A stretch of DNA of 64,000 bases from positions 1 to 64,000 of the forward strand of contig WQYA01000008.1 in the NCBI GenBank assembly GCA_009781495.1, given 5' to 3'. The notes under the pieces are model-generated. The model saw only the letters and a list, made by a program, of their open reading frames with translations. It made no database searches and had not been told where the DNA came from. The stretch comes from Cystobacterineae bacterium (lineage in GTDB: Bacteria; Myxococcota; Myxococcia; Myxococcales; Myxococcaceae). Numbering within the stretch: the first letter of the stretch is position 1; every line of letters begins with the position of its first letter. Positions 40,811 through 52,675 of this stretch are shown one piece after another. A program made the translations under genes and the position numbers.

Positions 40811-40935
40811 GGGGGCCTTCATCCATCCTGTCCAGACTTGAGAGATGGTGGACATATGTTCGGGAAGAGGGTGAACACTATAAGCGGCATTTTTCTCAAT
40901 AGAGAGACAAGCTGCCGTGGGAAACGAGCTCTGCA

Positions 40936-41207
40936 ATGGAGATAAAGAGAGAATGGATGCATTTCGCTTCAGCTCCTGAGGCGAACATACGCGCGTTGTG
41001 CCAACGTTATGGAGTGTCGCCGACAACGGATTATACGTGGCTTGCCCGCTATTTGAGTGAAGGCGAGGCAGGGCTTGAGGAGTGCTCCCGCCGCCCAAGG
41101 CACTCGCCGTGGCGGATAAAAACCTCCACGGAGAAGTGCATCGTGGAAGCGACGCAGAAGTGGCCATTTGGGGGGCAAGGAAACTCAAAGTATGCCTGTT
41201 GCTTCAA
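40936..41207 (+). pseudogene. N-terminal fragment of IS481 transposase
   Basis: The helix-turn-helix portion is clear: LCQRYGVSPTTDYTWLARYL then GEAGLEECSRRPRHSP, the usual IS481 start. A frameshift follows, since the next conserved piece (IWGARKLKVCLL, about 41166-41201) is in another frame. Homology ends at about 41207, where a CRISPR repeat begins. It cannot encode an active enzyme. Confidence 0.8.
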
Positions 41208-41351
41208 GTGTTCCCTGCCCTACGCGGGGGTGCTCCCATTCCAAGGGTCGGTCAGTCGATGGGTGCAGTCTGTTCCCCGCCCACACGGGGGTGCTCCCAA
41301 TCAAATGCCCTTTGCGAGGGCGACATGAGGCTGTTCCCCGCCCACGCGGGG
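41208..41351 (+). CRISPR. Orphan CRISPR fragment inside the IS481 remnant (inverted)
   Basis: Three repeat copies at 41208-41236 (one extra C and two changes), 41270-41297 and 41331-41351 (truncated after 21 nt) flank two 33-nt spacers, 41237-41269 and 41298-41330. On the plus strand the repeats read CTGTTCCCCGCC first, the opposite orientation to the main array. Repeat length, spacer length and sequence identify the same type I-E system. The repeats have the CCCAC variant also found in the oldest repeats of the main array. There is no leader. Confidence 0.85.
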
Positions 41352-41739
41352 CAAACTGGAGCGTTTGCATACCATGCTGAAATGCGAGTTGCTGCAGGGC
41401 CGCCGCTTTGCCAACCTTGGGCACGCTGCCCGCGCTTTCGAGGCTTGGCGCTACTGCTACAACCAGGAGCGCTCGTACGAGGTGCTGGGAGGGCAGGTGC
41501 CGCCAACGCGCTACCGCCCCTCCAACCGGAGTTATAGCCCTAACCCTCCGCCGCCGGAGTACGACGCTTCCATGCGCGTACGAAAGGTAGAAAAATCAGG
41601 ACGGCTCAGCTTCAAAAACAACTCGCTGCGAGTCGGCAAAGCATTCACTGGGGAATTTTTGGGGATTCGGGAGGAGGTGAAGGCTGGGGTTTATTCACTC
41701 TGGTGGTTTACAGTACCCAAGTGGGCCTCATTGACTTAA
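41352..41739 (+). pseudogene. C-terminal fragment of IS481 transposase
   Basis: After the truncated repeat the frame resumes with LERLHTMLKCELLQGRRF, AFEAWRYCYNQERSYEVLGG, PPTRYRPSNRSYSP and LSFKNNSLRVGKAFTGE, the typical IS481 integrase-core end and C-terminal domain. The final conserved segment (TQVGLIDL) lies in another frame, so a second frameshift exists near 41700. Pseudogene. Confidence 0.8.
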
Positions 41740-41850
41740 AATGCCCCTCCTTCTACCTCAGAAAGCCCTCTTGAAATCCGTCCACCATGTCTCCGAACAT
41801 GTGTCCACTATGTGTCTGGCCTGGACAGACTCAAGAGGCGAGCTGGGGCA

Positions 41851-43098
41851 GAAGCACCCCCGCGTGGGCGGGGAACAGAGGAAGGGAGCTTCGAAGACAA
41901 GCGGGGACGGAGGAGCACCCCCGCGTGGGCGGGGAACAGGGGAAGGAGATTCCAGCAGAGTTGAATAGCGAAGGAGCACCCCCGCGTAGGCGGGGAACAG
42001 GATGGTTCAAAATCCACGGAAACAACGTCAATAGGAGCACCCCCGCGTAGGCGGGGAACAGCTCTGAAACCATGCGGCAAAGCTGCATAAGCTAGGAGCA
42101 CCCCCGCGTAGGCGGGGAACAGGTAGACGGCTTGTCTCCATCCCGCCGAATAGCAGGAGCACCCCCGCGTAGGCGGGGAACAGTGCTCGAAAAAAATGGC
42201 ATCAAGGTCATATCTAGGAGCACCCCCGCGTAGGCGGGGAACAGCAAAACAAAAGTGGGCAGAGTTTGAAAAGCTCAGGAGCACCCCCGCGTAGGCGGGG
42301 AACAGCCTTGGCGCGCGGCTCATTGAGTTGAATTTTTGGGAGCACCCCCGCGTAGGCGGGGAACAGTTCCATTGTTTTTCTCCTCACGCTTGAGGCGGGG
42401 GAGCACCCCCGCGTAGGCGGGGAACAGATTGGAGGAAAGATGAAAATGGAATTTAAATTAGGAGCACCCCCGCGTAGGCGGGGAACAGTCGAAGAAAGTC
42501 TCAGGAAATCTCCAGAGCAAAGGAGCACCCCCGCGTAGGCGGGGAACAGATTCCCGCGGAGAAAATTTTTGGAGAAGTGTGAGGAGCACCCCCGCGTAGG
42601 CGGGGAACAGAATTTCCCCTCACAACAGACGGCGTGAGAAATAGGAGCACCCCCGCGTAGGCGGGGAACAGGTCCTTCTAGGCGCTCCTTCTCTGCTGTG
42701 TTGAGGAGCACCCCCGCGTAGGCGGGGAACAGCAACCATGTTGGCGGCAATTTTTCGCACAGCAGGGAGCACCCCCGCGTAGGCGGGGAACAGCAATGCA
42801 TTGCTTGTCGTCGCCTTCTCCGCTGAGGAGCACCCCCGCGTAGGCGGGGAACAGCGTCCCATCATTTGCAAGTTTGTGTCGAGGGTAGGAGCACCCCCGC
42901 GTAGGCGGGGAACAGGTCGACTCCCAGACGCGGAGGACAGAAGCATCGGGAGCACCCCCGCGTAGGCGGGGAACAGCTTCGATAGGGGCTGGATATTTTT
43001 TAAGGCAGAGGAGCACCCCCGCGTAGGCGGGGAACAGGCGCCCGCCTTTTCCGAGAAGACCCCCGCCGAGGGAGCACCCCCGCGTAGGCGGGGAACAG
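41851..43098 (-). CRISPR. Type I-E CRISPR array, 21 repeats and 20 spacers
   Basis: Twenty-one 28-nt repeats start every 61 bp from 41851 to 43071, with 20 spacers of exactly 33 nt. On the plus strand each begins GGAGCACCCCCGCGT and ends GGCGGGGAACAG; the crRNA strand is minus (CTGTTCCCCGCC..), with a short GC hairpin as usual for I-E. The two repeats at 41851 and 41912 have GTGGGC instead of GTAGGC, and the first also has a G to A change, marking the low-coordinate end as distal and old. New spacers would enter at 43098, next to cas2. The base after each repeat in crRNA sense is always T or C. Confidence 0.98.
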
Positions 43099-43149
43099 AC
43101 TTCTTTTCTCTCGCAAATCCTCAACTTTTTCTAGGTCACTCCACCATTT
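43099..43149 (-). promoter_or_regulatory. CRISPR leader (short)
   Basis: Only 51 bp separates the cas2 stop from the first repeat. It is purine-rich on the crRNA strand (GTTGAGGATTTGCGAGAG, then AAAAGAAGT before the repeat). Any longer leader or promoter must extend into the 3' end of the cas2 fusion gene. Confidence 0.5.
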
Positions 43150-44085
43150 TCATTCACTTTCATCGGTTTCTCCCCTCTCTTCCTCATGAATATCCCCCCT
43201 GCTTCTGCTGCGCAGCTTCTCATACAACGCCTTCGTCGCCTTGCAATCCCCTAGCACCCTATGCGCACCCACCCGTTCTATACCAAAATATTTGAGCAGC
43301 GTTCCCAGCTTGTAGTCCGACGGGGCATCCAAAAGTTTACGCGCCATACGCAAAGTGTCTATGCATGCATGGACGGGCATGGAGAGCGCACACCTTTCAT
43401 AAGCCACGCGCAGAAACCCCATATCAAAAGCAATGTTGTGCGAAACCATAGGCCATCCCTCGACGAATGCGTGAAATTCATGCATCACTTCATCCAATGC
43501 GCGACCCTCCTTCACGAGAGTTTCGTTGGTTATGCCGGTGAGTTCCTCTATGTGCGGCGGCACGGTGCCTTGGATACGTATGAGTGCTTGAAAAACTTCT
43601 CTACACTCGTCTTCAACCACCTTTATCGCCCCTATCTCCATTATCTCATCCGTGTCTGGTGAAAAACCAGTGGTCTCAACATCCACAACAACATAGGTGT
43701 CCACAAGCGCCGGAGCACGCTTTTTCACAGCAGCAACACGCTTTGCTAAAAGGCGCTTTTTCACCTTGGAAAAACCCGGTTTGAGTTGAGTCGCACTGGC
43801 GTGTGCTTTGCCAGGGTGCGGCCGCAGCATTAACTTCAGGCCGTCAAAGTCGATGGGCTCCCATGTCGCGCCCCAAACGCGAAAGTCAAAACCCTGCTCG
43901 TTCTTGTCCGGGTATACCATGACGGCTCGCCCGTTGGTCGCGGTTTTGATGACGCGCTCCCAAATCTTCTCGCGCACACGAGCGGATTGTTTGCCCACAT
44001 AAATATTTGTATCCACTTCAAACAGCCAGCGCGTCAAATCACCACGCAAGGCATGGGGACAGTTGGTCAACGTGAGCACAATCAT
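43150..44085 (-). CDS. cas2: Cas2 fused to a DEDDh (DnaQ-like) exonuclease
   Basis: Residues 1-95 are type I-E Cas2 (MIVLTLTNCPHALRGDLTRW, then VDTNIYVGKQSARVREKIWE), the structural core of the Cas1-Cas2 integrase. Residues 130-290 are a DnaQ exonuclease with a full active site: Asp135 and Glu137 (VVVDVETTGF), Asp221 (SHNIAFDMGFL), His275 and Asp280 (AHRVLGDCKA). Such fusions are known in a minority of I-E systems, where the nuclease trims prespacers. ATGA overlap with cas1. The acidic tail has no known role. Confidence 0.95.
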   Translation of the reverse strand: MIVLTLTNCPHALRGDLTRWLFEVDTNIYVGKQSARVREKIWERVIKTATNGRAVMVYPDKNEQGFDFRVWGATWEPIDFDGLKLMLRPHPGKAHASATQLKPGFSKVKKRLLAKRVAAVKKRAPALVDTYVVVDVETTGFSPDTDEIMEIGAIKVVEDECREVFQALIRIQGTVPPHIEELTGITNETLVKEGRALDEVMHEFHAFVEGWPMVSHNIAFDMGFLRVAYERCALSMPVHACIDTLRMARKLLDAPSDYKLGTLLKYFGIERVGAHRVLGDCKATKALYEKLRSRSRGDIHEEERGETDESE

Positions 44086-45116
44086 GTCTCCTCCACCTCT
44101 TCCTCCTCGCTACCCTCCGCTGATTCAAAAAATAATCTGCCATAACCCTCTCCCGCTTCTTCCTCCACCTCCTCGTCACGCGGGGCATAGGAAACACCGC
44201 TTTTGAGTTCGCCGAGTTTGTTGTCCCATAGATGTACAATACTAGCTGCAAAATCCTCTGAATCGGCTCCGTCCGTGCCCAAAAGCAGGCGACGAATATC
44301 CATTGTGCACCGCTCAAGCATATGGCCGTCAGAAATCAAATCTCGCACAGAGCGACGTGTATCCGCACCAATATCCTCGCGGGGCTTTGAGGCCATTTCA
44401 AAAGCCACGGGGATGATGAGCTCAGCCTTATAGAGGTCGGCAATGTCATAGACAAAAGAACGCTCATGTCCCGTATGAATAAAGCCCAGGCCGGGCGATA
44501 ACCCCAGCGCGACAATGACACTGTGGCATAGGCCATAGAGACAGGCGTTGCCGGCTGAAATCGCTTTGTTTATCTCTGTTCCCGACGCATAGTCGTCCGC
44601 CTCATATTCTCTGCCGGACCACGGCACACCCCATCGTTTGGAATAATGACGGTAGACACCACGCACACGTGCACCTTCCCTTCCGCGCAACTGCTGCATC
44701 GTAAGCTCGGACACGTCTTCGTCGGGGAAACGCATTTTATACATTTCGCGAGCCACCGCAAGGCGGCCGCGTGTGTTGGATACCAGCTCGGCCTGGCGTA
44801 TCAGAAGCGTCGCCGAATGCGTCAATGGCTTGCCATGGGCATAATAGCGTACGCCATGTTCCCCTACCCATACAATGGAGGCCCCGCTGTCGCCAATCAA
44901 CTCCATCGCCCGATGAGATATCTCCGTCCCCGGCCCAAGGAGCAACACCCCTATCTGCGCCGCCGGTACATGCACTGTGCCACGTACATCCGTTATGGTA
45001 ACAGCACCGTCCTGACGGTTTATTTTGCAGCGCTCTAGGTATAGGAAAGACAGCCTGTCGCGCATGACAGGCAAAGCGTGAAGCCCGGGCTTTTCAATGC
45101 CGGGCTTGTCGCTCAA
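44082..45116 (-). CDS. cas1: CRISPR-associated integrase Cas1 (type I-E)
   Basis: Metal-dependent integrase inserting new spacers. Active-site Glu147 (RGREGARVRGVYR), His214 (GFIHTGHERS) and Asp227 (VYDIADLYK) match the E. coli positions. The acidic C-terminus (EEVEEEAGEGYG, then EEEEVEE) is an extension. The start is probably the TTG at 45116, overlapping cas6e as TTGA, because residues before the ATG at 45065 align with the family N-terminus. Confidence 0.95.
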   Translation of the reverse strand: MSDKPGIEKPGLHALPVMRDRLSFLYLERCKINRQDGAVTITDVRGTVHVPAAQIGVLLLGPGTEISHRAMELIGDSGASIVWVGEHGVRYYAHGKPLTHSATLLIRQAELVSNTRGRLAVAREMYKMRFPDEDVSELTMQQLRGREGARVRGVYRHYSKRWGVPWSGREYEADDYASGTEINKAISAGNACLYGLCHSVIVALGLSPGLGFIHTGHERSFVYDIADLYKAELIIPVAFEMASKPREDIGADTRRSVRDLISDGHMLERCTMDIRRLLLGTDGADSEDFAASIVHLWDNKLGELKSGVSYAPRDEEVEEEAGEGYGRLFFESAEGSEEEEVEET

Positions 45117-45712
45117 ACCTGCGTCCTCGCAATGGTGAGCAAGCCACAGCCATATGCCTTGCCGCGTCCAATGCCTTTCATAAGAGCCACACGAAACTTT
45201 TCAGCGTTGTCAACGGCAAGAAGGCCTTCAAAGGTGACAGCACGAATTCGAACAGCATCGAAAACCTTCCACGTGTCACCGGCAACAGAACAACCTTTAA
45301 CATCAAATCCGTGCTCGGCACTTTTCCTGTCAAGCCATTCAAGCTGTTCTGTTACCGAGCGCAAAGCATAAATTTTGCCGCGCTTACCGTTGCGGTTCTG
45401 CTTTTTGTGTTCAACCGGATTCGCGCACAGGCGGAAATTCCAAGTTTGGCCCTGATCAATTCGCCCAAGGAAGGGTTTGTAGTCGAGGGTTTTGTTCCTT
45501 GCATCCAAGACACCTATCTCTCTAACAATCCGCTGCAATTCCGGGGCATTTGGACTCACAATGAGAAGCTCTTTGCTGTTTTCCAAGTCATCAACGCGCC
45601 AGAGGTTTTCGTTGGTTTCTCTGTTGCGTTCGCCGGGGAAGGCGGCAGAGAGGATGCCGTGGATGATGTTGGGCGGCGGCACACGCTTGAGCACAACGCG
45701 CGTCATGTACAT
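45113..45712 (-). CDS. cas6e: crRNA-processing endoribonuclease Cas6e
   Basis: Cleaves the repeat hairpin to make crRNA and stays in Cascade. RAMP fold with a His in the N-terminal helix (PPPNIIHGILSAAFPG) and the glycine-rich C-terminal loop GIGRGKAYGCGLLTI typical of CasE. 199 residues. The ATG at 45712 has GGAGG at 7 nt and overlaps cas5e by 10 nt; the ATG at 45706 makes an ATGA overlap and is also possible. Confidence 0.93.
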   Translation of the reverse strand: MYMTRVVLKRVPPPNIIHGILSAAFPGERNRETNENLWRVDDLENSKELLIVSPNAPELQRIVREIGVLDARNKTLDYKPFLGRIDQGQTWNFRLCANPVEHKKQNRNGKRGKIYALRSVTEQLEWLDRKSAEHGFDVKGCSVAGDTWKVFDAVRIRAVTFEGLLAVDNAEKFRVALMKGIGRGKAYGCGLLTIARTQV

Positions 45713-46449
45713 GGCAGCACCTCCAATTCTTCCAGAGGGTCGTGCTCCCCAATGTCCTGTTCCTTGACAAGATGGGGCAAAGGGAATTCGCAGACGCGAC
45801 GAAAATGATATTTCTTGTGCTCAGGGTTAAAACTGAGGGGAAAGTCGCGCAAAAGATAGCTGTCTTTTTCGGTGTCCTTGTCGGCATCCATAACGATGCG
45901 CAGCTTGTCCTCTTTAAATTTGCTTCGGCGCAGACTGGCAATCAACGGCCATTTTTTCAGCGCTTCTTTGAGGCCATCTTCCACAACCCCCAAAGACACT
46001 CGCCCCTCCGGAGGACAACTCCTCCTCCCGAGATAGAGCGGAAACATCGGCGTACGAATAGCCACGTCTATCTCGTCCAGAAAACCCTTCTCGCCCTCCA
46101 ACCCAACAAGAAATGCCGCGTCGGAAAGATAATAGCGTATGGTCAGATAAGAGCTGCTTGCCTTCTCTCGGTTAATTCGGCTTCTGTCAAAGGAATCCCA
46201 GAACATCTCTTTGTGAGCCATGTGAAAATCTTTGAGCAACCTGCCCGGCTCATCTATGCGCACGCCGAATTTCAAATGAGCAAGTTTTTCAATTCTCTCT
46301 TCCTCATCTCGTCTGACACCCAACGCAGCAGCGCACAGCCCTATCACCCCGGACTTTGACGGCGAGCGTCCAGTGATTCGCCGGTCAAACTTGGAGTCCA
46401 CGCCCCATGATTGCAGAGGAGCAGCCAGTCGCAACAGAAGCGTACTCAT
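45703..46449 (-). CDS. cas5: Cascade subunit Cas5e (CasD)
   Basis: Caps the 5' handle of the crRNA in Cascade. Cas5 N-terminus MSTLLLRLAAPLQSWGV, then RRITGRSPSKSGVIGLCAAALG and the SSSYLTIRYYLSDAAFLVGL core. The frame extends upstream into cas7e, but ATG 46449 forms an ATGA overlap with the cas7e stop and begins at the family motif, giving 248 residues. Confidence 0.95.
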   Translation of the reverse strand: MSTLLLRLAAPLQSWGVDSKFDRRITGRSPSKSGVIGLCAAALGVRRDEEERIEKLAHLKFGVRIDEPGRLLKDFHMAHKEMFWDSFDRSRINREKASSSYLTIRYYLSDAAFLVGLEGEKGFLDEIDVAIRTPMFPLYLGRRSCPPEGRVSLGVVEDGLKEALKKWPLIASLRRSKFKEDKLRIVMDADKDTEKDSYLLRDFPLSFNPEHKKYHFRRVCEFPLPHLVKEQDIGEHDPLEELEVLPCT

Positions 46450-47519
46450 TTGAGCACGTTCTCCACTTCGCTTTCCAGTCGACAAAGAAGAGCAGCGAGT
46501 GTTTCCATCACCTCGACACCGTTGATTCCGCACATGAGTTTTCCAACCGCGAGTGAAGCCAAAGGCTGTGCAATCCACTCCTTTGCTTCATTGGCTTTGC
46601 CAACAAGCTTCTCAGCACTCGCTTCCACATAGCCCTTGTCGCCGGCTTTGATGGGGCATTCAAAGGCTCCGACAAGGTTGAGCGGTTGGTCTTCGCGTAC
46701 CGCGACATATATAGCATTCGGCGAGGTTCGATTTGCGAATGTATTCACTTTGCCGGTGGGCATGGAACGGGCGAAGGCATCGACAAATGCGCGGACAGCT
46801 TTGGCCGCCGCGTCCGTTTTGCCGAGTTGTTTGCGCAAGTCATGAACGGCTATGGTCGCATAGCGATAAAGCGTCGCAGAGTTGTATTCTACAGTGCCCA
46901 TCATTGCTGCGCCCGCGTCGGTTTTATCCTCGGGAGGAAAATCGTCCACAGCCGTAAAATAATCATATTCGTTCAAAACCTTATGCGTAGAAATTGCATG
47001 AGCTACTTGACAGGATGCGTCAATATTGAGAGTCGCCTCGTCGGCTACCATGCGGCCAAAAAGCGCCAAGTCAATGCTGGGTGTAGAAACAAGCGCCTTT
47101 TGCGCAGTTTTTTTGTCGGCCTTCGGGTCACTCATGGCCAATTCTGCCAAGGCTTTGGCCTGAGCAGGAGACATAAAAAACAGCGGCGCGTCCTTGCCAC
47201 CAGCAACCGTCTTTTCTTGCAATCCAGCTGCTGTGAGAATTTTTTTCGCCGCGTCGTTTGCATCCTGAGCATAGCCCAGTTTGTTCAACGCGTCTGTCAC
47301 CATAACTTGTATGCGCTTTGTGCGCACGCCTATATCATCCTCGGCGAACGTGTCTCTAAACATATCCCTCACAGCTTTTTTCCATGCCTGAGAGCTGACA
47401 CGGGCACGAGTAACACCGCCATAAACGGCCGTCTTTGGACTGCCGGTATCGTCACGGTTCACACAGCTTGGCGGCACCGTCTGCAAGATATGAATATCTA
47501 CATAGAGTCTATTGCCCAT
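46446..47519 (-). CDS. cas7: Cascade backbone subunit Cas7e (CasC)
   Basis: Six copies form the crRNA-binding backbone. N-terminus VDIHILQTVPPSCVNRDDTG with KTAVYGGVTRARVSSQAWKK and the central SIDLALFGRMVAD are characteristic, as is GTVEYNSATLYRYATI. 357 residues. It overlaps cse2 by 11 nt and cas5e by 4 nt. Confidence 0.96.
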   Translation of the reverse strand: MGNRLYVDIHILQTVPPSCVNRDDTGSPKTAVYGGVTRARVSSQAWKKAVRDMFRDTFAEDDIGVRTKRIQVMVTDALNKLGYAQDANDAAKKILTAAGLQEKTVAGGKDAPLFFMSPAQAKALAELAMSDPKADKKTAQKALVSTPSIDLALFGRMVADEATLNIDASCQVAHAISTHKVLNEYDYFTAVDDFPPEDKTDAGAAMMGTVEYNSATLYRYATIAVHDLRKQLGKTDAAAKAVRAFVDAFARSMPTGKVNTFANRTSPNAIYVAVREDQPLNLVGAFECPIKAGDKGYVEASAEKLVGKANEAKEWIAQPLASLAVGKLMCGINGVEVMETLAALLCRLESEVENVLK

Positions 47520-48102
47520 CGGTTTCTTTATCCTTTCTTATTTTGTAATAGTCCTGTCCCCATCTGAGCCTGACACTGTCCCGCGACTCCGGTTTTTGAA
47601 ATTGAAACAAATCCTTCGCCAATTGCGGATAATCCAAGGGGATGCCTTCACTCTTCAAAAGCTGAATGAGCCCACGCAGGTGGTGAGCCAACTCCTCCGG
47701 GCTGTCCGAAGTCACCACTGCGTCGAAACGACGTTTTATGGCCTGCTCGGCGGATTCACCACGTCTGATTTTCAACATACGTACTGCGCTTCCCAACGGC
47801 TCTCCCAATACGCTCATGGGATTTTCACGTGGGTTTTTCCCCTGTTGGTGCAATGCAAACAAGGTGATGGCCATATGCGCAGCCCACTCTGCATGTGTTG
47901 GCTCGTCTGTCCTGGAAAAAAATTCTTCCGGCAGATTTTCAAGTGCAAACTCCCAAATATCCGGCAAGCTGCCCGGCTTTTTTCCAATGCCGCGCCTCAG
48001 TTTGGCCAAGGATGCACGGACATAGGATTCATCGCGACTGTTCAATAAATACCCGATTTTCGCGCACACGAAATCATTCAGTGCTTTTGACCGATTTTCC
48101 AC
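47509..48102 (-). CDS. cse2: Cascade small subunit Cse2 (CasB)
   Basis: Helical dimer stabilising the target R-loop. Recognised by YVRASLAKLRRGIGKKPGSL near the N-terminus, THAEWAAHMAITLFALHQQG and the C-terminal LRWGQDYYKIR. 197 residues; the first 29 nt overlap the end of cse1 and the last 11 overlap cas7e. Confidence 0.94.
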   Translation of the reverse strand: MENRSKALNDFVCAKIGYLLNSRDESYVRASLAKLRRGIGKKPGSLPDIWEFALENLPEEFFSRTDEPTHAEWAAHMAITLFALHQQGKNPRENPMSVLGEPLGSAVRMLKIRRGESAEQAIKRRFDAVVTSDSPEELAHHLRGLIQLLKSEGIPLDYPQLAKDLFQFQKPESRDSVRLRWGQDYYKIRKDKETDGQ

Positions 48103-49744
48103 GTTTGGCGCCTTCTTTCTTTTTGAAGGTTAATGTTTCACGGTTTGTCGTATTATAAAGGAACCAATTGTGCGCTTCTGGTGCAGAAAACCCATTGCGC
48201 CCAGTGAGTGCCTGCGGCGAACAGTTTTCAACAATTTCCCGCCCGCATGCACGCACGATGGCTTGCGACGTGCCCCACCACTCATCGCATTTTTTGTCTA
48301 TCTTCTCACCTGTGTTGTCTGCTTCGGGGTCAATGCTTTCAAGCCATCGACGAAACGGCTCATCCAGCCTATAATAAGCCTGTGCTTTTGCCTCGTCACG
48401 AGCAGTTAATCCATCATCTCTTCCGGCATTTTTCCCATCTTTGATTCCAGCCGCTCTGACAACATTCTGTGCAAGTATTCCCACTTCTTTGACAAGGCTG
48501 GCTGTCACATCAAGTTCAGCGATAATGCGAGCAACCCAGTCTTTGTGGAGTTCAGAAAGCAGCCCAGCATTGAAAGAAAGAGAATCGAAGAACACATCTT
48601 CGACAAAGAAATCCTTATCGCCATATTTCACTCCGGATATTTGAAAGCGAAAGACGGAATCTTCCAATTTGTCTTCTTGTTTAAGTTTTCTGAGCCAACC
48701 AACAACACCTGGACAACAATTCCCACCCCCTTGCCCAACAAGAGGAGCAAAGTCACGCCACATCTGCACGGATGGATTGTGTCTTTTGGGCACATATTCG
48801 GGAGGAGCCGATTCTTTTGTTGCGTTATTTCGCCACACAGTCATTTGCTCAACAAAGGCATTTTCTTTTGGAAAAAAATCTCCACCTTGCAAGAAATAAC
48901 CTGTGACAACATCTCCCTCGCGGTTGAGCAGAAGTCTCCTTGATTGCAGCGTAAGCAAAGCAGCCTGACTGTTGGGAGGACTTATCTGAACACGCTCTTT
49001 TGTGCGTGGTGGTTCTTCCCATGTTGCTTTGTCATCGCCCCAAAGAGCATTTCCTAGGCTTGGAAGCAACACGAGATTCAACAACAAGGTTTCAAACAGG
49101 TTGTTTCCGACTGCGGTAATAAGTCCCAGCTTTCCAAGCCATCCGGCTCCGGGACTTGGCATGCCTTGACCTCTTTGAGACGGCTTTGCGGCTGTATCGT
49201 CGAACCCATTCACATGAAGAAGCCAACGGGCAGCTTCTGCGAAAGTGAGATTCGACTTCCCGTTGGCGGTTCTCTGCGGAAAGAGTCTGGGCTTATTGGA
49301 GCTTTCTAAAATTTCGCCGTTGAGTTTCGCAGCCGTATATTCAGTCGCTTTGACCATGCTGACGACTTGATAAAACGGCGTTTTGGGATGAAACAACTCA
49401 AACCGGTCTTCATATTCTTTGAGATAGGCCTCAATGCGCTCCTGTGGAAAACGCTTATGGCTCCAAAGCGCCTTCCATAACTCAAGTGCGCCGTCAATTT
49501 GCTCCTCTTCATCATCAGGAAACGGTTCGCCATCAATGTTTTTGCCACCAAAAACTCTGTGAAGAATAGCCAACAGAAACCGGAGTACAGCTATGTCTTG
49601 TGTCGGCAGCTCTCCCGCCAGAGAGTGCAACTCATGCGCGCGGCGAAAAACATCCAAAAGTGACACCTTATCGCGTTCACCTTCTAACGTCAGTACCGCT
49701 ATCCACTTCTTATGCAGCAGGTTAAATTTAGCTTGCTCTCGCAT
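48074..49744 (-). CDS. cse1: Cascade large subunit Cse1 (CasA, Cas8e)
   Basis: PAM-recognising subunit that recruits Cas3. Family motifs are FNLLHKKWIAVLTLEG at the N-terminus, FELFHPKTPFYQV, the TFAEAARWLLHVNGFD region and LFETLLLNLVLLP. The C-terminal four-helix bundle follows from about residue 390. 556 residues. It is separated from cas3 by 130 bp that holds no gene; GGGGAGAAAAAG precedes the ATG. Confidence 0.95.
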   Translation of the reverse strand: MREQAKFNLLHKKWIAVLTLEGERDKVSLLDVFRRAHELHSLAGELPTQDIAVLRFLLAILHRVFGGKNIDGEPFPDDEEEQIDGALELWKALWSHKRFPQERIEAYLKEYEDRFELFHPKTPFYQVVSMVKATEYTAAKLNGEILESSNKPRLFPQRTANGKSNLTFAEAARWLLHVNGFDDTAAKPSQRGQGMPSPGAGWLGKLGLITAVGNNLFETLLLNLVLLPSLGNALWGDDKATWEEPPRTKERVQISPPNSQAALLTLQSRRLLLNREGDVVTGYFLQGGDFFPKENAFVEQMTVWRNNATKESAPPEYVPKRHNPSVQMWRDFAPLVGQGGGNCCPGVVGWLRKLKQEDKLEDSVFRFQISGVKYGDKDFFVEDVFFDSLSFNAGLLSELHKDWVARIIAELDVTASLVKEVGILAQNVVRAAGIKDGKNAGRDDGLTARDEAKAQAYYRLDEPFRRWLESIDPEADNTGEKIDKKCDEWWGTSQAIVRACGREIVENCSPQALTGRNGFSAPEAHNWFLYNTTNRETLTFKKKEGAKRGKSVKSTE

Positions 49745-49874
49745 TCTTCTTTTTCTCCCCGCTTATTCCGCTCTCTGTTTGCTCAAGCTCTGTCGACGCC
49801 TCTCCTGCAATCTTCTTGTCCCCCCATTTGTCGTCACAGCTCCCCCAACACTTTCACCTTTGTCTCTGCTTTTC

Positions 49875-52586
49875 CTATGTATCTTCCTTGGTGCAGACAA
49901 GACCATCGTCTTGTGTATATGAAATTTTGTATCCACACAAGCTTGCGGAGTTGTTGTTGTCCACAATGAGGAAAAGCTCGCCGCTGAGCCACGGTGATTT
50001 GAGCCATGGCCCCAGGCGTTCATGCGTCTGTGTTTCTAGCTCCTTAACAACTTGGTCGATGATGTAGGGGTAGCAGAGAAGGGCTGGGAGACGGAGACTT
50101 TGCGTGGACAAACGCCTGGCCAACTCGGCAGACAGTTCGCCCAAAGGCAACTTTTCGGAAGAAAGAGGCGTCTGCGTAATAAAGAAAAACCCATCACCCT
50201 TTTCTTGAACAACCAACACCTCAATGGATTCGTCTGTATCTCGAACTGTGGCCTCGCCTTTTTTGCCTGACGCACCATCCTCAACGCCAGTACGAAGCCA
50301 GTTGACGATGGTTTTGTCCGGTTTCCTCATCGGACTGCCTATTCTAAAAGTCTTCGCTTTCTCTTCTTTGTTTCTGATTTTTTTCTCCCATGCCTCTTTC
50401 TCCTGCGTTGACTCAACCTTCTTGTCATAGGCGGCGTTCACAAGGGGCGCAATGTCCTCTGGGAGCGAAACATCGCTGCGGCCATCCAACAAGTCTCTTG
50501 TTCTCAGCAGCAAATGTTTGTCATAGACGCTGTCGATGCCTCTTTCAAAACCGTCTTTGTCAATGCCGGTTAGAAAGCAGCGGGGGGTTTTCAATTTCTC
50601 CGGCCGCCTACGCTCATGGCGATGCAAGCGCCCCATGCGCTGCAGCAGCAAATCCATCGGCGCAATGTCGGTAACCATAACGTCAAAGTCGATGTCCAAA
50701 GACTGCTCAAGTACCTGCGTTCCCACAACAATGCGTTTGTCAGGCCGTTTGCCTTTCTTGCCAAGTGCCTCGCGCAACTCCCCCTCTTTTGCCAGTCTGT
50801 CTGTAGCAATAAAACGCGAATGTATCAGACGCACTTTGTCTGCGCCAAAACGCTCTCTTAACACTCGCGCCATTTCCTGCGAACGAGCTACCGTGTCCAT
50901 AATGACGCCCGCACAACCACCACCGGACAACAAATCCTCAAGTTTGTCTGCCACCACCTCCCGCGCCAAATATTCCACCTGGACAGAGCGTCCCTTCCCT
51001 TCACACCCCACAGCACAACATTTGACTTCGTCACCATCGCTGCAGGTTATCAGTGGATAATGAAGGCTTTTCGTCCATTCTTCGGCAAGGTTCTCTTTGC
51101 CCAAATAGGCGCCTATCACTTCGCGCCGCGTGTCCGCAGGCAGCGTGGCAGACAATACAACAACCGGCACCCCATAAGCTCCGAGCCATCTGAGCGCCAT
51201 CTTGAGGTATTGGTTCATATACGCGTCATAGGCGTGGCACTCGTCGATGATGACCACCTTCCCCGCAAGCCCCAAATGCCTCAACATGACGTGTTTTTGC
51301 TTCAGCGCCACCAACAGAAGCTGATCCACCGTGCCCACGACAAAATCCGCAAGCATGGCTTTCTTGCGTCCGTTGAACCACTGGTGCACAAAAGCCAAGC
51401 GTTCTTCACTGTTGTCGTCGCTGCCTGAAACCTCAGACTTTCCCTCGAAAAGCTTGCAGAAGTCCTTGTTGAACTGCGCCTTTCCATGAACAAGGTTGAT
51501 GCTGTGTTTTTCGTCAAAATCAAAATCCAGGTTCTCTATCCAATTTGTCATCCGGGGAAAAATACCGTCGCTTGTGGCTTGCGTGGGCAACGCGAAAAAT
51601 ATGCCACCGCTGTCTGTCCTGTTTCGAAACACCTCCGCAACCACCAAAGCGGCCTCCGTCTTCCCCAACCCCATCGGCGCCTCAATAACCATGATGCCGG
51701 GCTTGCGAAGGTTTCTCGCCGCTTGCAGTGCGGCTTTTTGCATCTCGTTGGGCTCATAGCCAAAGCGCTCAACATATAAGCCTTCGTCACTGCGGATAAC
51801 ACAGGGGTCCCACTTGTTGGGGAGCTTGAGTTCTTCCCAGCCGAACCGTGCTCGTTCGGCGGAATCCATTTTTAGTGGGCAATCCAAAGAAATGAGTGGA
51901 AACTTATCGGTGTCGCTTGCAATCCAATCGGCCATTATCAACAAACCACTCAGGAGCACTTGGCCCGGCATGCTTGGACAGGGGACTTCTGCAAGCGACT
52001 TGTATCCACCACATTCAAGTGCAAGCGCTATCAATTCACGCTGTGCACAAATCCAAGCTTCCACGCCGCAACCAAAATTGATTTGATATGCACCCAAAAC
52101 CTTTTCATATTCATTATCCGGCGGTTTGCCATGGTGCGAACCGAGAATAACAGCGGCGTTTCTGCACAAATTTTCCTCTGACAAACCTAGGGGTTTTGCT
52201 TTTTCCAAAAGCAACTGCGAGGCGAGGGCATGAGGGGTCTGGGAAGAAAAGCTGTATTTGTCGCTGCTTTCCCTAAGCTTGAAACCGCTCATGAGCAACC
52301 TGTCATATATCGCCTCATCCAAATCCGTTTTCGGGAAGGAACATTTTGCCTGAAAAACCGGTGTGGCCTTGCCAATGTCATGGGCCACCGCAAGAAACAA
52401 AACGAGCCTCTGCGCCTCCTGCTCATCCGCTCCAATGGACTTCGCAACCGTCTGCCGTACAGCCTCCGGCAGCCACTTCTTCCACAACCTCTTCGCCACC
52501 TCCGCCGTATCCTTTAGGTGTACACTCAAAGGAAGCCAATGGGACCCCTCTTTAGACTTCTTCGCCCACAAAGCGGATATGCTCAT
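49875..52586 (-). CDS. cas3: CRISPR effector nuclease-helicase Cas3
   Basis: Degrades target DNA recruited by Cascade. HD nuclease first (HLKDTAEVAKRL, AVAHDIGKATP, GSHHGKPPDN), then a superfamily 2 helicase with Walker A EAPMGLGKTEAAL, DECH box VIIDECHAYD, LSATLP and motif VI LLQRMGRLHRHER, then the C-terminal domain. ATG 52586 has GAGG 6-7 nt upstream and gives 903 residues, a normal single-chain type I-E Cas3; the upstream frame extension is not supported. No lost catalytic residue was seen. Confidence 0.96.
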   Translation of the reverse strand: MSISALWAKKSKEGSHWLPLSVHLKDTAEVAKRLWKKWLPEAVRQTVAKSIGADEQEAQRLVLFLAVAHDIGKATPVFQAKCSFPKTDLDEAIYDRLLMSGFKLRESSDKYSFSSQTPHALASQLLLEKAKPLGLSEENLCRNAAVILGSHHGKPPDNEYEKVLGAYQINFGCGVEAWICAQRELIALALECGGYKSLAEVPCPSMPGQVLLSGLLIMADWIASDTDKFPLISLDCPLKMDSAERARFGWEELKLPNKWDPCVIRSDEGLYVERFGYEPNEMQKAALQAARNLRKPGIMVIEAPMGLGKTEAALVVAEVFRNRTDSGGIFFALPTQATSDGIFPRMTNWIENLDFDFDEKHSINLVHGKAQFNKDFCKLFEGKSEVSGSDDNSEERLAFVHQWFNGRKKAMLADFVVGTVDQLLLVALKQKHVMLRHLGLAGKVVIIDECHAYDAYMNQYLKMALRWLGAYGVPVVVLSATLPADTRREVIGAYLGKENLAEEWTKSLHYPLITCSDGDEVKCCAVGCEGKGRSVQVEYLAREVVADKLEDLLSGGGCAGVIMDTVARSQEMARVLRERFGADKVRLIHSRFIATDRLAKEGELREALGKKGKRPDKRIVVGTQVLEQSLDIDFDVMVTDIAPMDLLLQRMGRLHRHERRRPEKLKTPRCFLTGIDKDGFERGIDSVYDKHLLLRTRDLLDGRSDVSLPEDIAPLVNAAYDKKVESTQEKEAWEKKIRNKEEKAKTFRIGSPMRKPDKTIVNWLRTGVEDGASGKKGEATVRDTDESIEVLVVQEKGDGFFFITQTPLSSEKLPLGELSAELARRLSTQSLRLPALLCYPYIIDQVVKELETQTHERLGPWLKSPWLSGELFLIVDNNNSASLCGYKISYTQDDGLVCTKEDT

Positions 52587-52675
52587 AGAATACCTCGCGA
52601 AAAACGAAAGCGTTTCCCATCCCCCCACGGGGTTTTAAAATCCCCATCTCCGCCCACATAAAAAAACCCACCCTC

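What the first reader, a model, noticed from the sequence alone, without database searches (positions are those of the whole stretch)
40829..41827. CRISPR fragment replaces the core of an IS481 transposase
Terminal inverted repeats and both ends of an IS481 transposase are present, but the middle (about 180 codons) is gone. In its place are 144 bp with three repeats and two 33-nt spacers, in the opposite orientation to the main array that begins 23 bp beyond the IS end. The repeats match the old-end variant of the main array. This suggests recombination or inversion between array and IS, or a second array split by the IS, leaving spacers that lack a leader.
Basis: seen in the sequence. Interest (0 to 1): 0.7.

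Follow-up and report, generated by a model that had tools for sequence, protein, structure and literature searches.

The report
CRISPR scrap inside dead IS481 element
Next to a working-looking CRISPR immune locus sits a dead jumping gene whose middle has been swapped for a small, reversed, leaderless piece of old CRISPR array; it is most likely a fossil of a DNA rearrangement and not a new kind of system.

Summary
An IS481-family element (ISEc19-like) spans 40828-41828 with both terminal inverted repeats and both ends of its transposase gene. The middle, about codons 104-244 by ISEc19 numbering (about 141 codons, not 180), is missing. In its place, 41209-41351 holds three type I-E CRISPR repeats and two 33-nt spacers on the + strand, opposite to the main 21-repeat array (41853-43101, read on the - strand). 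Repeats 2 and 3 carry the "CCCAC" variant otherwise found only in the two oldest main-array repeats. Repeats 1 and 2 carry mutations, no leader is present, and the transposase has lost both catalytic aspartates and gained a frameshift. The element lacks a target-site duplication and is single-copy in this fragmented MAG. I found no relative with the intact locus, so history must be inferred. My best account is a one-off rearrangement: an old piece of the array, later lost from the main array, was captured in inverted orientation while an internal gap in the IS was repaired. A second possibility is two truncated IS copies flanking a remnant of a second array. Misassembly is unlikely but cannot be excluded without reads. 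Low functional promise.

The parts
40828..41208 (+). Left part of IS481-family element: left terminal inverted repeat and 5' part of transposase gene (about codons 1-103 in ISEc19 numbering, frameshifted)
41209..41236 (+). Mini-array repeat 1, degenerate (one inserted base plus substitutions)
41237..41269 (+). Mini-array spacer 1 (33 nt)
   Evidence: no match in IMG/VR
41270..41297 (+). Mini-array repeat 2, old-end variant with one G-to-A change
41298..41330 (+). Mini-array spacer 2 (33 nt)
   Evidence: no match in IMG/VR
41331..41351 (+). Mini-array repeat 3, first 21 nt only, identical to the two oldest main-array repeats
41350..41828 (+). Right part of IS481-family element: 3' part of transposase gene from GKLERLH (keeps catalytic Glu region) and right terminal inverted repeat
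41853..43101 (-). Main type I-E CRISPR array: 21 repeats of 28 nt (29 counting the pyrimidine that always follows), 20 spacers; two oldest repeats carry the C variant, the rest the T variant
43102..43150 (-). Leader side of the main array, next to cas2
43150..52628 (-). Type I-E cas operon: cas2 fused to DnaQ-like exonuclease, cas1e, cas6e, cas5e, cas7e, cse2, cse1, cas3

Best explanation
This is a fossil of a one-off rearrangement. An IS481 element sat beside the old end of a type I-E array. A break or replication gap inside the transposase gene was repaired with loss of about 420 bp, and a nearby piece of the array (2 spacers, about 2.7 repeats) was copied in from the opposite strand by template switching as filler DNA. 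The source spacers were later lost from the main array by ordinary repeat-repeat deletion, and the orphan repeats decayed. Shown: the anatomy, orientation, old repeat variant, absence of leader, decay, and dead transposase. Inferred: the single event, the template switch, and that the source was this array.
For: Both IS halves are in the same orientation, cover complementary parts of one transposase, and end in matching inverted repeats, which fits one element with its middle replaced. The insert begins and ends inside repeats, and its repeats carry the variant of the two oldest main repeats 0.5 kb away. The right junction has a GG overlap between repeat 3 and the expected IS codon (sequence). 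Mutated repeats 1 and 2 and the frameshift show age. No other genome searched in the phylum has an array of this repeat, so a local source is simplest.
Against: The two spacers are not in the present main array or elsewhere in the MAG, so the source must be assumed lost. There is no target-site duplication, which a single simple insertion would normally have left unless erased. No intact relative of the locus was found.
Confidence: 0.5

Rival explanations
1. A second, oppositely oriented array once lay beside the main one. Two IS481 copies inserted at its two ends in the same orientation, and deletions removed the inner half of each IS together with most of the array, leaving N-part, array remnant and C-part.
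For: No target-site duplication around the composite. Several related IS481 ends exist in the genome, so the family was active here. Type I-E loci often have more than one array (general knowledge).
Against: Needs two insertions in the same orientation and two deletions that happen to leave complementary, non-overlapping halves. The two ends of the element match each other about as well as a left and a right end from other copies do (36/48 against 38/48), so the ends do not tell two elements apart from one.
Confidence: 0.3
2. Assembly artefact: a short-read MAG joined unrelated pieces at repeats.
For: The genome is a 102-contig MAG whose other IS481 copies all sit at contig ends. At the right junction 21 nt are identical to main-array repeats.
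Against: The left junction shares no word longer than 10 nt with anything else in the window, and this IS copy is 77-83% identical to the other ends, so no long overlap exists to mis-join. Mutations unique to repeats 1 and 2 would need their own source.
Confidence: 0.07
3. A functional mini-array: the IS ends make a non-autonomous, trans-mobilisable element that carries two working spacers.
For: The inverted repeats persist. Each repeat still folds into the Cas6e-type hairpin, and repeat 3 is kept exactly up to the usual Cas6e cut position, so both crRNAs could be made if transcribed.
Against: Single copy, no leader, no sigma-70-like promoter, repeats mutated and hairpins weaker (-9.9 and -11.1 against -13.1 kcal/mol), and no target in phage or viral collections.
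Confidence: 0.06

Closest known systems
IS481 family, ISEc19 (YagA) group
   Same: IS481 transposase with N-terminal helix-turn-helix part and C-terminal part; C-part 52% identical to ISEc19; terminal inverted repeats
   Different: Catalytic core with both aspartates missing, frameshifted, and no target-site duplication; cannot transpose by itself
Type I-E CRISPR arrays
   Same: 28/29-nt GC-rich hairpin repeat, 61-nt period, 32/33-nt spacers, same repeat as the adjacent array
   Different: Two spacers only, inverted, leaderless, degenerate and embedded in an IS
IS insertion into CRISPR-Cas loci (PMC10359306)
   Same: Shows that IS and CRISPR-Cas loci collide often in nature, including by break-induced transposition
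   Different: There the IS interrupts cas genes; here array DNA interrupts the IS

Membership tests
IS481 insertion sequence | Transposase of the IS481 family | tested here: met
   Both halves match NF033577 and align with ISEc19, though only as fragments far below the full-length cut-off
IS481 insertion sequence | Terminal inverted repeats | tested here: met
   36/48 matching positions, ends CTGTCC shared with other copies in the genome
IS481 insertion sequence | Complete DDE catalytic triad (autonomous element) | tested here: not met
   Region holding both Asp residues absent; only the Glu region remains
IS481 insertion sequence | Target-site duplication | tested here: not met
   No direct repeat of 2-15 nt at the flanks
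Type I-E CRISPR array | Same repeat as a locus with type I-E cas genes, regular spacing | tested here: met
Type I-E CRISPR array | Leader next to first repeat | tested here: not met
   Alignment of main leader with upstream sequence is at shuffle level (score 14.0 against mean 14.6)
Type I-E CRISPR array | Transcribed and processed to crRNAs | not testable with these tools
   No expression data; hairpins still predicted

The most novel reading that the evidence does not exclude
A non-autonomous IS481 derivative that carries a CRISPR mini-array and can move spacers between loci, using transposase from related copies in trans.
Probability: 0.03. Interest if true: 0.75.

Novelty: new variant of a known kind. 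Interest (0 to 1): 0.25.

Why it matters
It shows a rarely reported direction of IS/CRISPR collision, array DNA captured inside an IS, and preserves two spacers probably older than most of the present array. If many such cases exist they would show how arrays lose, flip or disperse spacers. A single decayed case does not change the understanding of CRISPR function.

Tried and rejected
Simple inversion between array and IS: rejected because both IS halves keep one orientation. Fold-back copy of present old-end spacers: rejected because neither mini-array spacer matches any main spacer. Ectopic Cas1-Cas2 integration: rejected because that would duplicate IS sequence, not bring in full CRISPR repeats (reasoning from the known mechanism). 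Multi-copy mobile mini-array: no second copy in the MAG. Self-targeting of the IS by array spacers as the cause of the break: no convincing match in the window (part of the printed output for spacer main14 was cut) or elsewhere in the MAG. Spacer targets: none in phages (chance-level hits only) or IMG/VR exact 24-mers (main-array spacers were not scanned there). Relatives for an empty or intact site: the other two genomes of the genus lack this cas1, the IS DNA is absent from 97 relatives apart from one 30-base match, the best-scoring transposase in the class is 35% identical, and none in IMG/VR. The repeat has no array elsewhere in 194 other genomes of the phylum. Literature searches found IS insertions in cas genes and IS481 near I-E loci, but no array inside an IS.

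Full report
Setting. The window is 64 kb of a 65.3-kb contig (C8) of a 102-contig, 88% complete genome assembly of 2.27 Mb that looks like a MAG. A complete type I-E cas operon runs on the - strand at 43150-52628, with cas2 fused to a DnaQ-like exonuclease. The main array follows cas2, 41853-43101, with 21 repeats and 20 spacers read on the - strand and the leader at 43102-43150, so its oldest end faces the IS. The two repeats nearest the IS read CCCAC in the loop and all others CCTAC.

The IS. Inverted repeats CTGTCC... at 40828 and 41828 match at 36 of 48 positions. The N-part and C-part each match the IS481 transposase model, at positions 2-72 and 230-284 of 284, and align to ISEc19 YagA with residues 104-244 missing once the frame-shifted WGARKLKVCLLLQ stretch is counted. 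Both catalytic Asp residues lie in the missing part; the Glu region GKLERLH is kept (assignment of the triad from general knowledge of IS481). The C-part is 52% identical to ISEc19. There is no target-site duplication. Other ends of the same IS group, 77-83% identical where the match is long, lie at the ends of contigs C65, C44, C36, C4 and C76, which suggests that further copies exist but broke the assembly.

The insert. 41209-41351 contains repeat 1 (with an inserted base and substitutions), spacer 1, repeat 2 (one substitution), spacer 2 and 21 nt of repeat 3, on the + strand. Repeat 3 is identical over 21 nt to the two oldest main repeats; repeat 2 has the same variant. New repeats in type I-E arrays are copied from the leader-side repeat (established knowledge), so the CCCAC variant is the older state and the insert probably stems from the older era of the array. 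The first base after each mini repeat is a pyrimidine (C), as after all 20 main repeats checked (15 T, 5 C), consistent with a 29-nt repeat whose last base comes from the PAM. The left boundary is uncertain by up to about 18 nt, because VCLLLQ is only weakly similar to ISEc19. The right boundary coincides with the usual Cas6e cut position, and GG is shared by the expected IS codon and the repeat; this may be coincidence.

Function. The mini-array spacers match nothing in the rest of the array, the genome, phage records or IMG/VR. No leader and no sigma-70-like promoter precede the insert. Hairpins are predicted but weaker in repeats 1 and 2. A stop codon and a frameshift prevent a fused transposase. 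The element is single-copy in the assembly. I therefore regard it as inert.

History. A plain inversion with one breakpoint in the IS and one in the array would flip one IS half; both are in the same orientation. A single repair event with inverted filler from the nearby array explains anatomy and orientation in one step but requires later loss of the source spacers. Two same-orientation IS copies flanking a remnant of a second array also explain it and fit the missing target duplication, but need more events. Misassembly is unlikely: no word longer than 10 nt crosses the left junction elsewhere in the window, and at the right junction the shared word of 21 nt ends at the junction. No related genome shows the empty or intact site, so the choice between the two histories is a judgement.

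Comparison. IS insertion into cas genes is well documented (PMC10359306), and IS481 transposases have been noted next to I-E loci (PMC9944170). Array DNA inside an IS was not found in the papers searched, but that library is incomplete.

Noticed in passing
43150-44085: Cas2 is fused at its C-terminus to a DnaQ-like (DEDDh) exonuclease, a known I-E variant; the nearest relative found (61% identity) is in a MAG labelled Oscillospiraceae (L034) with a similar but distinct repeat, and the other two genomes of the genus lack this cas1, suggesting horizontal acquisition.
   Followed up: partly
contigs C76, C4, C44 ends (L007, L006, L004): Three IS481 ends in the assembly are flanked by the same repeated sequence (acaccctccgggg next to acaaaaaagtaacc), so the IS may prefer a dispersed repeat as target.
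   Followed up: no
genome G000: The genus has genomes of only 2.1-2.7 Mb while other sampled members of its family have about 4-14 Mb, pointing to genome reduction.
   Followed up: no
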